A DNA stretch of 57,039 nt from NCBI GenBank assembly GCA_001824255.1, contig MHWQ01000002.1, positions 336,533 to 393,571 on the forward strand, read 5' to 3'. The stretch comes from Candidatus Zambryskibacteria bacterium RIFCSPLOWO2_02_FULL_51_21 (lineage in GTDB: Bacteria; Patescibacteriota; Minisyncoccia; Phycocordibacterales; Zambryskibacteraceae). Position numbers and translations under genes: made by a program. The notes beneath the pieces are model-generated. The model had not been told where the DNA came from and did no database searches. It saw only the letters and a list, made by a program, of their open reading frames with translations. Of the stretch, positions 2,840 to 42,053 are shown in pieces; positions within the stretch are counted from its first letter, which is position 1; each line of letters begins with the position of its first letter.

Positions 2840-3259
2840 TTATTTTAACATAGAAACGGAAGGATTATGCTTTATTCCAATAAACACCGCGAGAAGTGCG
2901 CCAACGGCGTCAGATAGAAGGTCATGCATAACGTCTAGATAATACTTGGCTTCGACAGCGTCGGTAATGCCGTTTACGTATTCAAAAATTTCCCATCCTA
3001 TCCCCACGGCCATAACCAGCAGGAAAACCGCCAGCACGGCAAAAATTTTTTTCCTCGGCGCGCCGCGAAAAATAATACCGGAAAGAAAAAGTCCCCAATA
3101 TAGCCCGAGTCCGCCCGCAAAACTGACCAGGAAATGTACCATCCAGTCGAACCACCAATAAGTCCAGTACAAATATAATTCGCCGGCCAGAAAGTGTAAC
3201 GCTGTGGTAATTATCGCGAGAAAAAGGACAAGGAACAGTATGAAATTATTTTTTCTCAT
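2840..3259 (-). CDS. small integral membrane protein (DUF2238/VanZ-like appearance)
   Basis: 4 TM segments; WFDWMVHFLVSFAGGLGLYWG and GWEIFEY..DVMHDLLSDAVGA motifs. Confidence 0.65.
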   Translation of the reverse strand: MRKNNFILFLVLFLAIITTALHFLAGELYLYWTYWWFDWMVHFLVSFAGGLGLYWGLFLSGIIFRGAPRKKIFAVLAVFLLVMAVGIGWEIFEYVNGITDAVEAKYYLDVMHDLLSDAVGALLAVFIGIKHNPSVSMLK

Positions 3260-3277
3260 TGAATAAGTCTAGCATAA

Positions 3278-3309
3278 ACGGAAATCCCGACCGAAGTCGG
3301 GATTTCCGT
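3278..3309 (-). terminator. 14-bp hairpin with UUCG loop on - strand
   Basis: ACGGAAATCCCGAC-TTCG-GTCGGGATTTCCGT. Confidence 0.7.
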
Positions 3310-3310
3310 T

Positions 3311-3431
3311 AGGGTTATTTTGGTATACCCTAGTTTCTAAACTAGGTGGGTGTCAGCTCTGTGCCCCGAGAGGCAGAGAGACATACGACTCCCTGAAAAT
3401 GTTTTAGCTAGATAATACCTCAAATAACCCT
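3311..3431 (-). ncRNA. candidate structured ncRNA, 121 nt
   Basis: closing stem AGGGTTATTT/AAATAACCCT, second stem GGTAT/ATACC, hairpins CCTAGTTT-AAACTAGG and GTATGTC..GACAC/CTCTG..CAGAG; TATAAT 6 nt before the 5' end; hairpin directly after. Confidence 0.5.
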
Positions 3432-7331: not shown

Positions 7332-7907
7332 CTATTTGTGCCAGCTTTTGAGCTTGGTGGTTTCGAGCTTCTTCAGTGCTTTGACCGCGGCGTAGGCATT
7401 GTTGGCACTGTTCTTGCTCCTGGACATGAGCTTCGCTCCTATCTCCTTCAGGCCCGCGAGTTCAAGCACTGTTCGCACGGAGCTGCCGGCGAGGATGCCC
7501 TTGCCTCTTACCGGCCTGATTTTCACCCAGGAGGAGGCGTGCTTGGCCTCGGTGTCGTGCGGGATGGACATTGTATTGGTCGTATTGACGGTAATCATGT
7601 TCTTCTTGGCGTCGCGGAAGGCCTTCTCGATGGCGACAGGCGTGTCTGTCGCCTTGCCCTGGCCCACGCCCACCTGGCCCTTCCTGTTACCGGCCACGAG
7701 CGCCACCGAGAAGCTGAAGCGCCTGCCTCCAGCCATAACGCGGGTTACCCGGCGCATGGAAACAATTTTCTGGTCGAATTCCGGCTTGATGCGCGCTTCC
7801 CTGCGGGCAGGACGCCGTCCCGGCCGGCGTTCCCGCCTGTCGGAAGTATGCTTTTGACCCGTCTGAGTATTTGCCGTAACAGCTCCTGGTGTTTGTTTTT
7901 CTTCCAT
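7332..7907 (-). CDS. rpsE: ribosomal protein S5
   Basis: VTRVMAGGRRFSFSVALVAGNRKGQVGVGQGKA. Confidence 0.95.
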   Translation of the reverse strand: MEEKQTPGAVTANTQTGQKHTSDRRERRPGRRPARREARIKPEFDQKIVSMRRVTRVMAGGRRFSFSVALVAGNRKGQVGVGQGKATDTPVAIEKAFRDAKKNMITVNTTNTMSIPHDTEAKHASSWVKIRPVRGKGILAGSSVRTVLELAGLKEIGAKLMSRSKNSANNAYAAVKALKKLETTKLKSWHK

Positions 7908-24724: not shown

Positions 24725-24967
24725 ATGGCTAAGACATGCCCAGTTCTACATAAGACGTCTAAGGTCGGCGGCGGATACTCCAACAGGACCCGTGCGACCC
24801 AATTCAACCCCACCGGGATGGTGAGGAAGTACCCCAATTTGCAGAAAAAGCGCATCTACGTCCCGGAATTGAAGAAAACCCTCACTCTCACCCTCTCCAC
24901 CCGCGCCTGGAAAACCATCGCCAAGAACGGCGCCCACTCTGTGCTCAAAAAAGCCGGGGTTATTTAA
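24725..24967 (+). CDS. rpmB: ribosomal protein L28
   Basis: MAKTCPVLHKTSKVGGGYSNRTRATQFNPTGMVRKYPNLQKKRIYVPELKKTLTLTLSTRAWKTI. Confidence 0.92.
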   Translation: MAKTCPVLHKTSKVGGGYSNRTRATQFNPTGMVRKYPNLQKKRIYVPELKKTLTLTLSTRAWKTIAKNGAHSVLKKAGVI

Positions 24968-24976
24968 TAAAAAAGA

Positions 24977-25002
24977 AAGAGCCGGAACGTTCCGGCTCTT
25001 TT
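24977..25002. terminator. perfect hairpin terminator (U-tract on both strands)
   Basis: aaagagccggaacgttccggctcttt. Confidence 0.8.
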
Positions 25003-25012
25003 GTGAAAGACG

Positions 25013-25155
25013 GGATCTGGGCGCCGACCACTCTGCCTTATTGTGTCCACTGCTGGGACTCGGAAGGTGTGGTATCAACGCATTTCACCGCTCCACCACG
25101 CCTTTACTCACTCGTTCTTGTGAATACTCTTTCGAGCTACGTGTCGCCCAGATCC
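25013..25155 (-). ncRNA. candidate structured ncRNA, ~143 nt, unknown class
   Basis: 11-bp closing stem GGATCTGGGCG/CGCCCAGATCC; internal stems AAGGcGTGGT/ACCACaCCTT, GCTC-GAAA-GAGT, TTCAC/GTGAG, GTCC/GGAC; TATGAT 7 nt before 5' end; terminator downstream. Confidence 0.55.
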
Positions 25156-25257
25156 AGTACCAATCATACTACCTCATCTCCAAAATTCTGCCATCCTTTT
25201 TGAAGAGCGTATTTAAACAAAAAGAAAGAGCCGGATATTTTAACTGTAGCATGAACA

Positions 25258-25285
25258 ATGGCCGATCCTGTACAGGATCGGCCAT
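25258..25285. terminator. 28-nt perfect palindrome hairpin
   Basis: atggccgatcctgtacaggatcggccat. Confidence 0.65.
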
Positions 25286-25292
25286 GTTTCTG

Positions 25293-25487
25293 CTACTCTT
25301 CCTCCCGCCACGGCGGAAAGACGTCGCCCGGACGCAGATGTTCGTGTCCGGCCCGGCATACCCACGATTCACAAATGATGTAAGCGCCGACAGCGTCACG
25401 GCGGTGCTCTCTGTTGTGTGTATTCTTCAGAGGTTCGCCGCATTTCGGGCAGGCCAAGCGAAGTACGCTTTGAACGCTATTATGCAT
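25293..25487 (-). CDS. hypothetical small Cys/His-rich (zinc-ribbon-like) protein
   Basis: LACPKCGEPLKNTHNREHRRDAVGAYIICESWVCRAGHEH. Confidence 0.55.
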   Translation of the reverse strand: MHNSVQSVLRLACPKCGEPLKNTHNREHRRDAVGAYIICESWVCRAGHEHLRPGDVFPPWREEE

Positions 25488-25520: not shown

Positions 25521-26309
25521 CTATTTCAATCTCAATATGGTTCCGTCCGTATCAAATTCGATGGTGCCGGAATCAATTGTGGATATGATTTTTGCGCCGA
25601 CGCGTTCCAAAATTTTCAAAACTTCTTTGTGCGGGTGGCCGTAGGTATTGTCCTTGCCGGCGGAAATTACGGCGTACTCCGGCGAAACGACTTCGGCAAA
25701 TGTGAGCGAAGTCGAAGTGCGCGAGCCGTGATGCCCCGCTTTCAAAACATCGACGTCCAGAACCTGCCTGCCGGCAGGCAGGTCTTTGTCCAAATGCAGC
25801 AAAATATTTTCCGTCTTTATCGTCGCATCGCCGGTAAAGAGGAATGAGGCCTCGCCGTAGTCGAGCCGCGCCACCACCGAGCCGTCATTCGTATCCCAGC
25901 CGGATATGTCTCGGTCCGGGAAAAGAATCGTTAATTTCGCTCCGTCGCCGAAGTCTATCGTCTGTCCTCGCCTCGCGCTGTTTTGGTCCAGGTTAATACC
26001 CGTCCGGTATCTCTCGGCCACAGCCACAAGCCCCGCGGAGTGGTCCGCGTCCGGGTGCGTTTCAATAACCACATCTATGTAGCGGTCGCCGAAGGCCATT
26101 ACCTTCCCCAATTCCGAGAGCACCTTCCTGTTCCTGCCGCCGTCTATCAGCACCTGCTTGTGCGTCGGCGTATCGATAAAAATCGCATCCCCCTGCCCCA
26201 CGTCGAAGAAATAGACTTTCAAATTCCCCGGACCTTGCCCATAGACGGAAGTCCAGACCAAGATATTGGCCAAGACAAGAGTTGCCAGGACGTATTTCTT
26301 CCAATCCAT
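25521..26309 (-). CDS. MBL-fold hydrolase, ComEC C-terminal-domain-like, with in-frame palindrome
   Basis: VYFFDVGQGDAIFIDTPTHKQVLIDGG..ETHPDADHSAGLVAV...DLPAGRQVLDVDVLKAGHHGS. Confidence 0.88.
   Translation of the reverse strand: MDWKKYVLATLVLANILVWTSVYGQGPGNLKVYFFDVGQGDAIFIDTPTHKQVLIDGGRNRKVLSELGKVMAFGDRYIDVVIETHPDADHSAGLVAVAERYRTGINLDQNSARRGQTIDFGDGAKLTILFPDRDISGWDTNDGSVVARLDYGEASFLFTGDATIKTENILLHLDKDLPAGRQVLDVDVLKAGHHGSRTSTSLTFAEVVSPEYAVISAGKDNTYGHPHKEVLKILERVGAKIISTIDSGTIEFDTDGTILRLK
25763..25782. repeat. dispersed palindrome, in-frame in MBL-fold gene
   Basis: cctgcctgccggcaggcagg. Confidence 0.95.
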
Positions 26310-26330: not shown

Positions 26331-26951
26331 ATGACCAAACAATTCGAAGAGAAGAAATTCAATATCCCCTCGCTCAAGGGCATTTCCACAAAGACTATTG
26401 AAGAGCACCTGAAGCTCTATGCGGGCTACGTCAAGAACGCCAACATCATTTTGGCGAAGGTTGACGAATACTCCGAAGACTCCAATCCGCTCGTTGGCGC
26501 GGGCGAGGAGCACGCTTACGCCCTGGGCGAAATTCAAAGGCGCTTCGCATTTGAGTTCAACGGCATGAGAAACCACGAAATTTATTTCTCCCACTTCGTC
26601 GGCGGCTCAACTGCGCCCACCGCAGGCAGTCCGCTTATGAAAGCGATAGAAGAAGAATGGGATACGTTCGATAGGTGGCTCAAGCGCTTCAAAACTCTGG
26701 CCACTACCCGCGGAGTGGGCTGGGCTCAGCTTCTCTGGGACCCGGCTTCCGGGCGTCTTTTGAATAATTGGGTGGACGAGCAGCACCTGGGCCAGCTCTC
26801 CGCCTGCGTGCCGATTCTCGAGCTCGATATGTGGGAGCATTCATACGTGGCCGACTATCAACCTTCAGGCAAGAAGCAGTACGTCGAAGACTTTTTCGAG
26901 AACATCAACTGGCGGACCGTTGAAGAAAATTTCGCCAAGGTGCACCAATAA
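26331..26951 (+). CDS. Fe/Mn superoxide dismutase family
   Basis: NHEIYFSHF..., VPILELDMWEHSYVADYQ metal-ligand motifs. Confidence 0.88.
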   Translation: MTKQFEEKKFNIPSLKGISTKTIEEHLKLYAGYVKNANIILAKVDEYSEDSNPLVGAGEEHAYALGEIQRRFAFEFNGMRNHEIYFSHFVGGSTAPTAGSPLMKAIEEEWDTFDRWLKRFKTLATTRGVGWAQLLWDPASGRLLNNWVDEQHLGQLSACVPILELDMWEHSYVADYQPSGKKQYVEDFFENINWRTVEENFAKVHQ

Positions 26952-26963
26952 TTATTAAAACGA

Positions 26964-27002
26964 AGTCGCCCTCGGAAATCTTTTGGTTTCCGAGGGCGAC
27001 GC
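26964..27002. terminator. hairpin terminator
   Basis: gtcgccctcggaaatcttttggtttccgagggcgac. Confidence 0.75.
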
Positions 27003-27009
27003 AAGTGAA

Positions 27010-27294
27010 TCAGTGTACGGTCAGGAGCGGATTGCCGGGAAAAATCACTCGAAGTTGATCCTGATCGGCAGGTGAGAGTTCCTCGAGCAAGATAAAGCCG
27101 GTCTCTTCCTGCACGCAGTCGAACGGGACCGCCGTCTTGATCGTGTGGTCGTAGGTGAACTCGCGCGGCTCTTCGACGTTCACAGTCGAACCGGCGGCAA
27201 TCGCGGGCTTCTTCTCAAAATCCCACGAAAGCAGTGCCCCGTGCTGTGTGAACCAGCGTACCGCTGAGCTAAGTCTCAGTATGCCTGAATGCAT
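27010..27294 (-). CDS. hypothetical protein (ORFan cassette)
   Basis: ACAGGAGGAATGGTCAATG SD; hairpin downstream. Confidence 0.55.
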   Translation of the reverse strand: MHSGILRLSSAVRWFTQHGALLSWDFEKKPAIAAGSTVNVEEPREFTYDHTIKTAVPFDCVQEETGFILLEELSPADQDQLRVIFPGNPLLTVH

Positions 27295-39701: not shown

Positions 39702-39703
39702 GT

Positions 39704-39774
39704 GCGGGATGCCAGAATCGAACTGGCGACCACAGTTTGGAAAACTGTTGTTTTGCCACTAAACTAATCCCGCA
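39704..39774 (-). tRNA. tRNA-Gly(TCC)
   Basis: full cloverleaf, AC loop TTTCCAA, T-loop TTCGATT. Confidence 0.92.
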
Positions 39775-39792
39775 TTATTGGCTTATATGCTT

Positions 39793-39863
39793 TCGGGCTG
39801 CCCGGTAATGCTCCGGGGCCTCATCCACCCCATGGACGTATACTGCTTTTATACTACAGCCCG
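39793..39863 (-). tRNA. putative aberrant tRNA-Pro(GGG)
   Basis: CGGGCTG/CAGCCCG acceptor, AC stem CGTCC-ATGGGGT-GGATG, T-stem CCCGG/CCGGG; T-loop AGCATTA and D-loop AAAAGCA atypical. Confidence 0.6.
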
Positions 39864-39877
39864 TTATTCTATTGTTG

Positions 39878-39948
39878 TCGGGGCGCCGAGAATCGGACTC
39901 GGATCTCGCGCTCCCAAAGCGCGTATACTACCACTGTACTACGCCCCG
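39878..39948 (-). tRNA. tRNA-Pro(TGG)
   Basis: cloverleaf, AC loop TTTGGGA; T-loop TCCGATT. Confidence 0.88.
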
Positions 39949-39969
39949 CGGGGAGTGTGAATACCACGT

Positions 39970-40040
39970 TCGGAGTGCCGAGAATCGAACTCGGGTCTCA
40001 CGCACCCGAAGCGTGTATACTACCGCTGTACTACACTCCG
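39970..40040 (-). tRNA. tRNA-Pro(CGG)
   Basis: cloverleaf, AC loop TTCGGGT, T-loop TTCGATT. Confidence 0.92.
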
Positions 40041-40094
40041 TCAGCTTTTCTACTCTAGCATTTCGGAGTGATTTACGCTAACATTTCCTTACTT

Positions 40095-40165
40095 GCGGCC
40101 ATGGTTTAGTGGTAGAACGCGTCCTTGCCAAGGACGAGACGGGAGTTCGATTCTCCCTAGCCGCA
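40095..40165 (+). tRNA. tRNA-Gly(GCC)
   Basis: cloverleaf, AC loop TTGCCAA. Confidence 0.92.
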
Positions 40166-40183
40166 CTGGTACAATGGAATAAG

Positions 40184-40255
40184 GCACCCGTAGTGAAATG
40201 GATATCACGACGCGCTTCGGACGCGTTATTGTGGGTTCGAGTCCTGCCGGGTGCA
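40184..40255 (+). tRNA. tRNA-Arg(TCG)
   Basis: cloverleaf, AC loop CTTCGGA. Confidence 0.9.
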
Positions 40256-40289
40256 CAAATTATGGGATAATTTGTGCGAAAAGAAAGGG

Positions 40290-41735
40290 ATGAATTACAA
40301 GATTCCACAGGAAGTCAAAGATATTTCTGAAACACTCTCGAAAGCCGGATTCGAGAATTTTCTCGTCGGCGGATGTGTGAGAGATTTGCTGCTAGGCAGA
40401 GAGCCGAAGGACTGGGACATCACGACTATCGCTACGCCAGAAGAGATACAAAAAGTTTTCCCCGATTCTTTCTACGAAAACGACTTCGGCACCGTCGGAG
40501 TAAAAACTGAGACGACAGGAATTGTAGAGGTCACTCCATACCGTCTCGAGTCGGAATATTCTGACGCAAGACACCCCGATAAGGTCACTTGGGCAAATAA
40601 AATTGAAGATGACCTCGCTCGCCGAGACTTCACCATGAACGCAATTGCTCTCAATATCGAAACCGGAGAAATAATCGACCCGTTCGAGGGCCGGAAAGAT
40701 ATTGAGAAGAAAGTAATCCGCACCGTAGGCAAGCCGGAGGAGCGCTTCGGCGAAGACGCTCTGCGCATGCTCCGCGCGCTCCGGTTTGTTTCGGAGCTTT
40801 CATTCGTTCTCGACTCCGAGACACAGTCCGCGATAGGGGAAGGCGCCAATCTTCTCAAGAAAATTTCCAAAGAGCGCATCCGCGACGAGTTCGTAAAGAT
40901 AATTATGTCGGATAATCCGGCCATTGCTCTCGACATGGCGGCCCGGCTTAGTCTCCTCAAATATATTTCAAGCGAATTTGAGCAGGGGATAGGGGTGGAG
41001 CAGAATAAGGCGCACGCTTACACCGTATGGGAACACCTCCTGCGCTCGCTCAACCACGCGGCGGCCAAGAAGTTTCCTCTCCACGTGCGCGTCGCGGCCC
41101 TCTTCCACGACATAGCGAAGCCCCATACCAAGAGGATGGTTAATGACCAAGCCACTTTCTATGGACATGAAGTTGTCGGCGCGCGTTTAACGCGAAAAGC
41201 ACTTGAAGATTTGAGATTCCCCAAAGATTTGATAGAAAAAACGACCAAGCTCGTGCGCTGGCACATGTTCTTCTCCGACACGGAGCAGATTACGCTCTCT
41301 GCGGTGCGAAGAATGGTGCGAAATGTCGGCCCGGAGCTCGTCTGGGACCTCATGAACACTCGCGCCGCCGACAGAATCGGCACCGGAAGACCGAAAGAGA
41401 CGCCGTATCGCCTGCGCAAGTATCACTCGATGATAGAACAAGTTATGCGTGACCCGATTAGCGTAAAACAGCTTGTCGTAAACGGCGAAAGCATAATGAA
41501 ATTGACTGGCGCCACGCCCGGACCGCATATAGGATTTATTCTCGAAATTCTTCTGGCCGAAGTGCTTGATGAACCGAAGCGGAATGACAAAAGTTATTTG
41601 GAATCGCGTGTGAAAGAGCTCTACGACCTCGACCCGCAGGAGCTTGAACGGGTAGGCAGGGAAGCGAGGGCAAAAAACGAAAGCGAGGAAGAAAAAGAAA
41701 TAGAAAAGATAAAAGGAGAATACGGAGTAAAATAA
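40290..41735 (+). CDS. cca: CCA tRNA nucleotidyltransferase with HD domain
   Basis: FLVGGCVRDLLLGREPKDWDITT...RRDFTMNAIAL; HD domain ALFHDIAKP. Confidence 0.94.
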   Translation: MNYKIPQEVKDISETLSKAGFENFLVGGCVRDLLLGREPKDWDITTIATPEEIQKVFPDSFYENDFGTVGVKTETTGIVEVTPYRLESEYSDARHPDKVTWANKIEDDLARRDFTMNAIALNIETGEIIDPFEGRKDIEKKVIRTVGKPEERFGEDALRMLRALRFVSELSFVLDSETQSAIGEGANLLKKISKERIRDEFVKIIMSDNPAIALDMAARLSLLKYISSEFEQGIGVEQNKAHAYTVWEHLLRSLNHAAAKKFPLHVRVAALFHDIAKPHTKRMVNDQATFYGHEVVGARLTRKALEDLRFPKDLIEKTTKLVRWHMFFSDTEQITLSAVRRMVRNVGPELVWDLMNTRAADRIGTGRPKETPYRLRKYHSMIEQVMRDPISVKQLVVNGESIMKLTGATPGPHIGFILEILLAEVLDEPKRNDKSYLESRVKELYDLDPQELERVGREARAKNESEEEKEIEKIKGEYGVK

Positions 41736-41736
41736 A

Positions 41737-41767
41737 AATCCGCTTCGAGATGCGAAGCGGATTTTTA
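41737..41767. terminator. hairpin terminator
   Basis: aaaaatccgcttcgagatgcgaagcggattttt. Confidence 0.8.
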
Positions 41768-41780
41768 TTTTACGGAGTAT

Positions 41781-42053
41781 TTATTTTACGGCGTCTTTCA
41801 AACCTTTGGCCGGGCGGAACTTGGGCACGCGCATGGCGGGCACGGAGATCGATTCGCCGGTCCTCGGATTCCTGGCTTGCCTCGCGGCTCGCGTCTTGGT
41901 GGAGAAGATGCCAAGACCCGCGATAGAAACTTCGCCGCCCTTCTTCAGAGTCGAGACGATTGAGTCGATGACGACATCAACCACTTCTTCCGCCTGCACC
42001 TTGGTGCCGCCGATTTTCTCGTGCACCGCATTTGCGATATCTACTTTGTTCAT
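41781..42053 (-). CDS. hup: HU-family DNA-binding protein
   Basis: MNKVDIANAVHEKIGG...GLGIFSTKTRAARQARNPRTGESISVPAMRVPKFRPAKGLKDAV. Confidence 0.95.
   Translation of the reverse strand: MNKVDIANAVHEKIGGTKVQAEEVVDVVIDSIVSTLKKGGEVSIAGLGIFSTKTRAARQARNPRTGESISVPAMRVPKFRPAKGLKDAVK

What the first reader, a model, noticed from the sequence alone, without database searches (positions are those of the whole stretch)
25013..25155. Candidate novel structured ncRNA (about 143 nt) with promoter-to-terminator architecture
Seen on - strand: TATGAT, 7 nt, then GGATCTGGGCG paired perfectly with CGCCCAGATCC 143 nt later, then a strong hairpin with TTTCTTTTTT. Inside are AAGGcGTGGT/ACCACaCCTT, a GAAA tetraloop hairpin (GCTC-GAAA-GAGT), TTCAC/GTGAG and GTCC/GGAC. 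No convincing ORF was found. By eye it does not match tmRNA, SRP, RNase P or a tRNA, and 5S similarity is partial and in the wrong register. This looks like an ornate stand-alone RNA of unknown class.
Basis: partly seen in the sequence, partly recalled or inferred. Interest (0 to 1): 0.75.

Follow-up and report, generated by a model that had tools for sequence, protein, structure and literature searches.

The report
Orphan RNA carrying 16S rRNA hairpin
A very small uncultured bacterium of the candidate phyla radiation has a compact stand-alone RNA gene of no known family, and one of its hairpins is an almost perfect copy of a single hairpin of the ribosome's 16S RNA (not the bacterium's own version), which suggests a ribosome-mimicking decoy RNA that still needs experimental proof.

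Summary
On the minus strand at 25013-25155 there is a 143-nt sequence closed by a perfect 11-bp helix. It contains four hairpins, folds far better than shuffles (z about -4.6 to -4.9), and is followed by a strong intrinsic terminator. The promoter is weak: a -10-like TATGAT with no -35. No Rfam family matches, and the genome's 16S, 5S, RNase P and tmRNA lie elsewhere.
The central hairpin is a near-perfect copy of the tip of 16S rRNA helix 23 (the 690 loop). RNA nt 56-87 match 16S of another member of the phylum at 31 of 32 positions, and all 120 exact genome-collection hits of its 21-mer are 16S genes. It is not this genome's own version. Similarity stops abruptly on both sides, yet the stem continues with new, paired sequence. 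No full-length relative was found in 16 congeners, about 300 genomes of the order, 387 of the class or 384 of the phylum, so covariation cannot be tested.
Best reading: a lineage-specific structured RNA that displays a 16S helix-23 mimic, probably to capture a platform ligand such as IF3 or uS11. The mimic is shown; the function is inferred. The main rival is a captured scrap of foreign rDNA.

The parts
25013..25155 (-). The 143-nt structured RNA (RNA position p = 25156 minus window coordinate)
   Evidence: Fold z -4.86, 0 of 200 shuffles as good; no Rfam match
25145..25155 (-). 5' arm of the closing helix GGATCTGGGCG
   Evidence: 11 perfect pairs, pair probability 0.95-1.0
25013..25023 (-). 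3' arm of the closing helix CGCCCAGATCC
25126..25137 (-). Hairpin GCTC-GAAA-GAGT (tetraloop); competes with an alternative long-range pairing
   Evidence: pair probability about 0.6
25106..25125 (-). Hairpin ATTCAC/GTGAGT
   Evidence: pair probability 0.93-1.0
25064..25104 (-). Central hairpin AAGGcGTGGT...ACCACaCCTT
   Evidence: pair probability 0.8-1.0
25069..25100 (-). 16S rRNA helix-23 (690 loop) copy CGTGGTGGAGCGGTGAAATGCGTTGATACCAC, equal to E. coli 16S about 679-710
   Evidence: 31/32 identical to 16S of same-phylum genome G837 (locus L219); 21-mer hits in genome contigs, 120 of 120 in 16S
25045..25059 (-). Hairpin GTCC-CAGCAGT-GGAC
   Evidence: pair probability 0.75-0.84
24976..25001 (-). 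Intrinsic terminator hairpin (11 bp) followed by CTTTTTT; convergent with rpmB and perhaps used from both sides
25163..25168 (-). -10-like TATGAT, 7 nt before the RNA; no acceptable -35
   Evidence: not found by the promoter scan
24961..24986 (.). Copy 1 of a 26-nt direct repeat (terminator 3' half plus tail)
25210..25235 (.). Copy 2 of the 26-nt direct repeat (92%), on the other side of the RNA, 249 bp away
25293..25487 (-). Upstream 64-aa zinc-ribbon-like ORF with CxxC motifs, same strand, also in the insertion
   Evidence: only sub-threshold zinc-ribbon Pfam matches; no clear homologue in 297 genomes of the order

Best explanation
The locus encodes a terminated, stand-alone, compactly folded RNA of about 143 nt that displays a faithful copy of the tip of 16S rRNA helix 23 (690 loop) on a scaffold of unrelated sequence. 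SHOWN: the predicted fold, the terminator, the near-identity with 16S helix 23, the sharp limits of that identity, and the absence of relatives in the genomes searched. INFERRED: the RNA is transcribed, and the displayed hairpin acts by rRNA mimicry. It would bind a factor that normally sits on helix 23 of the 30S platform, most likely the IF3 C-terminal domain or uS11 (with bS18/bS6 or an assembly factor as alternatives), and sequester it, so tuning initiation or subunit assembly in trans. This would be a free decoy version of the mimicry that ribosomal-protein leaders use in cis.
For: Fold and terminator. Helix-23 copy: 28/29 identity with 16S of Planctomycetes and several CPR lineages and 31/32 with a same-phylum 16S. 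A covariance model of the whole RNA, run over 387 class and 384 phylum genomes, hits only this hairpin (RNA nt 54-90 or a part of it), and only inside 16S genes. The match stops exactly at the hairpin: anchored extension on both sides is no better than shuffles. The stem nevertheless continues with non-16S sequence that is paired at 5 of the next 6 positions (sequences; chance about 0.03, my estimate), and the one mismatch within the 32 nt turns a G-U pair into G-C. The bases that IF3 protects in 16S (G700, U701, G703, A706, C708; PMC4611024) are all kept, as RNA G77, U78, G80, A83 and C85. rRNA mimicry is an established control principle (PMC10931766; PMC4647458), and RNAs that sequester proteins are known (PMC8058203).
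Against: One genome only; no relatives, hence no covariation. No expression data. No convincing promoter. The mimic follows the 16S of other lineages (GCG/GCG) rather than this genome's own 16S (GGG/CCG), which is odd for a decoy of its own factors unless those contacts are tolerant. No partner protein has been identified.
Confidence: 0.38

Rival explanations
1. A captured scrap of foreign rDNA: a short piece of another bacterium's 16S gene landed in an intergenic insertion next to unrelated DNA that happens to fold; no function.
For: The helix-23 sequence is of a foreign type. The RNA and a 64-aa ORF lie in about 550 bp between rpmB and the metallo-hydrolase gene; in the closest relative, L011, rpmB is followed almost directly by that gene. 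A 26-nt direct repeat flanks the segment. Singleton.
Against: A random scrap would not be expected to start and end symmetrically around one hairpin with complementary non-rRNA extensions, nor to sit inside an 11-bp closing helix next to a terminator.
Confidence: 0.25
2. A cis-acting element: the structured 3' UTR or attenuator of the upstream 64-aa zinc-ribbon ORF, whose product or a ribosomal protein binds the helix-23 mimic and controls termination or mRNA stability.
For: Same strand, with the ORF end 137 nt upstream; ribosomal-protein leaders mimic rRNA in cis.
Against: The element is followed by a terminator and a convergent gene, so nothing lies downstream to regulate. A near-perfect palindrome at 25253-25290 separates it from the ORF.
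Confidence: 0.15
3. An RNA carried by a mobile element or phage of CPR bacteria, mimicking the ribosome of the host or of a neighbouring bacterium.
For: Patchy singleton in an insertion with direct repeats; foreign helix-23 type.
Against: No convincing match in the phage or plasmid collections beyond short weak hits; no transposase, integrase or phage gene found next to it. Viral contigs could not be searched.
Confidence: 0.12
4. A divergent copy of a standard RNA (5S, SRP, 6S, RNase P).
For: SRP and 6S RNA were not found at Rfam gathering scores in this genome.
Against: 5S, RNase P, tmRNA and 16S are present elsewhere. The RNA has no SRP domain-IV motif and no Rfam match at E<=10 inside its bounds. 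An SRP-like candidate lies at C2 about 286,140.
Confidence: 0.03

Closest known systems
16S rRNA helix 23 (690 loop), RF00177
   Same: 31/32 identical hairpin tip, same loop GUGAAAUG, same internal loop and IF3-footprint bases
   Different: Only this hairpin is shared; the closing helix, the other hairpins and the lower stem are unrelated, and the length is 143 nt, not 1540
Ribosomal-protein autoregulatory leaders that mimic rRNA (e.g. rpsF S6:S18 leader, S8, S15, L1, L20)
   Same: rRNA binding-site mimicry in a non-ribosomal RNA
   Different: Those lie in cis upstream of ribosomal-protein genes; this one is terminated, points at no downstream gene and copies the rRNA sequence almost exactly. 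The rpsF leader mimics the helix-23a region, not the 690 loop
Protein-sequestering decoy RNAs (6S RNA, GlmY)
   Same: Proposed mode of action: RNA imitates the natural nucleic-acid target of a protein
   Different: No sequence or structural relation; the target here would be a 30S-platform factor

Membership tests
SSU rRNA (RF00177) | Covers the conserved 16S core and scores above the Rfam cut-off | tested here: not met
   No RF00177 match at this place; homology limited to about 32 nt; genuine 16S at C1:9820-11359
SSU rRNA helix 23 module | 690-loop hairpin sequence and pairing | tested here: met
   31/32 identity, same predicted hairpin
5S rRNA / tmRNA / RNase P RNA | Rfam model match | tested here: not met
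   No match here; genuine copies elsewhere in the genome
6S RNA (RF00013) | Rfam model match; long hairpin with a large central bubble | tested here: not met
   No match; multi-hairpin fold instead
Ribosomal-protein leader (rRNA mimic in cis) | Located upstream of a ribosomal-protein gene on the same strand | tested here: not met
   Downstream is a terminator, then convergent rpmB
Ribosomal-protein leader (rRNA mimic in cis) | Binds the ribosomal protein | not testable with these tools
   Needs a binding assay
Protein-sequestering decoy RNA | Expressed stand-alone transcript | tested here: inconclusive
   Strong terminator, weak promoter; no RNA-seq
Protein-sequestering decoy RNA | Binds and titrates the target | not testable with these tools
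   Needs biochemistry
Conserved structured ncRNA family | Compensatory changes in relatives | tested here: inconclusive
   No relatives found

The most novel reading that the evidence does not exclude
A free, trans-acting RNA that controls translation by presenting an almost exact copy of a 30S-platform hairpin (helix 23), titrating IF3 or uS11, or passing itself off as a foreign ribosome, in an ultra-small CPR bacterium.
Probability: 0.25. Interest if true: 0.85.

Novelty: new variant of a known kind. Interest (0 to 1): 0.52.

Why it matters
rRNA mimicry is known to me only from mRNA leaders acting in cis. A stand-alone RNA built around an almost perfect 16S hairpin would be a trans-acting version aimed at initiation or 30S assembly, and it would give direct access to which proteins read helix 23 in isolation. 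It also shows that a Rfam search can miss a short, faithful rRNA module inside an otherwise unknown RNA.

Tried and rejected
(1) Rfam at gathering and permissive thresholds: only chance hits to the terminator and neighbouring palindrome. (2) Whole RNA as a shuffled mini-16S: ACGAGTGAGTAA and CAGCAGTGG resemble other 16S sites, but scores are at shuffle level. (3) 16S homology continuing beyond helix 23: rejected. (4) Relatives by DNA search, pattern and covariance model in genus, order, class and phylum: none, only 16S helix 23. Model R1 had one hairpin written one column off and was replaced by R2. (5) rpmB neighbourhoods of relatives and the upstream ORF as a guide to relatives, with a model search of those loci: nothing. 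(6) viral contigs failed on every attempt. (7) Literature: nothing found on a stand-alone helix-23 mimic in the open library.

Full report
CHECK. The fold is a closing 11-bp helix with four inner hairpins. The minimum free energy is -56.5 kcal/mol, z -4.86, with no shuffle as good. Pair probabilities are high for all helices except the GAAA hairpin, which competes with a long-range alternative. In the same 57-kb window about 1.4% of 143-nt windows reach z <= -4.8, mostly simple palindromes, so the fold is a good but not exceptional signal. The terminator is strong. The promoter is only a TATGAT with no -35.

SETTING. The window is part of a 482.7-kb genome that is 96% complete. Its 16S is closest, among the sequences at hand, to genomes of its own order, and its size and gene content fit the candidate phyla radiation (inference). 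The RNA lies between convergent rpmB (24725-24967) and a metallo-beta-lactamase-fold gene ending at 25521, together with a 64-aa zinc-ribbon-like ORF. In the closest relative (L011) rpmB is followed almost directly by that gene, so this genome has about 550 bp extra. A 26-nt direct repeat brackets the RNA.

NOT A KNOWN RNA. No Rfam family matches. The genome's own 16S, 5S, RNase P RNA and tmRNA are elsewhere.

THE KEY FINDING. The central hairpin contains GGAGCGGTGAAATGCGTTGAT. Because the scan stopped at its limit, a non-16S occurrence among unlisted hits is not excluded. The site is the tip of helix 23, the 690 loop. Over 29 nt the RNA is 28/29 identical to many of these. Over 32 nt it is 31/32 identical to 16S of a same-phylum genome (L219), and the one difference turns a G-U pair into G-C. 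The genome's own 16S has the order's GGG/CCG form and differs more. A match of this length to 16S cannot be chance.

LIMITS OF THE MATCH. Extension from the hairpin in either direction is no better than shuffles, and the 5' and 3' parts of the RNA show no significant 16S similarity. The stem nevertheless continues for six more positions with sequence unlike 16S, five of them paired. So a helix-23 tip sits on an unrelated scaffold.

DISTRIBUTION. DNA, pattern and covariance-model searches over 16 congeners, about 300 genomes of the order, 387 of the class and 384 of the phylum found no second copy of the RNA. The model's hits elsewhere cover only RNA nt 54-90 or a part of that stretch (one chance-level hit in a congener apart), and all of them lie in loci with a 16S match. 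Phage and plasmid collections gave only short weak hits. Viral contigs could not be searched.

MECHANISM. Position p of the RNA corresponds to E. coli 16S p+623 (my numbering from the sequence). The platform bases protected by the IF3 C-terminal domain (G700, U701, G703, A706, C708; PMC4611024) are all kept. uS11 also contacts this region (general knowledge). The most economical functional reading is therefore rRNA mimicry in trans: the RNA displays helix 23 and captures a platform ligand. Mimicry of rRNA sites is established for ribosomal-protein leaders, and RNA decoys for proteins are established, but I found no report of a stand-alone helix-23 mimic. Transcription, binding and effect are not shown. 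The strongest rival is a non-functional scrap of foreign rDNA, disfavoured by the symmetric, paired extension of the stem, the closing helix and the terminator.

VERDICT. Its function is plausible but unproven, and it is a singleton in the data available.

Noticed in passing
window 25210-25235 and 24961-24986: 26-nt direct repeat (92%) bracketing the RNA; it is the 3' half of the terminator plus its T-rich tail, so the segment may have been inserted or duplicated at a terminator.
   Followed up: partly
window 25253-25290: Near-perfect 19-bp head-to-head palindrome GAACAATGGCCGATCCTGT/ACAGGATCGGCCATGTTTC between the 64-aa ORF and the RNA.
   Followed up: no
window 25293-25487: 64-aa ORF with CxxC motifs (zinc-ribbon-like, Lar/Ogr-like at sub-threshold scores), with no clear homologue in 297 genomes of the order.
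   Followed up: partly
locus L059 about 7510-7600 (genome C2 about 286,110-286,200): SRP RNA is not found at Rfam gathering score in this genome; GTGCTGGAAGGAAGCAGCC here looks like a divergent SRP RNA candidate.
   Followed up: no
window 41641-41783, 421-563, 3241-3383, 26881-27023: Very stable long hairpins (z -6 to -10) with stems of about 14-21 bp, probably terminators between genes.
   Followed up: no
window 39702-40256: Five tRNA genes clustered on both strands (Gly, Pro, Pro, Gly, Arg).
   Followed up: no
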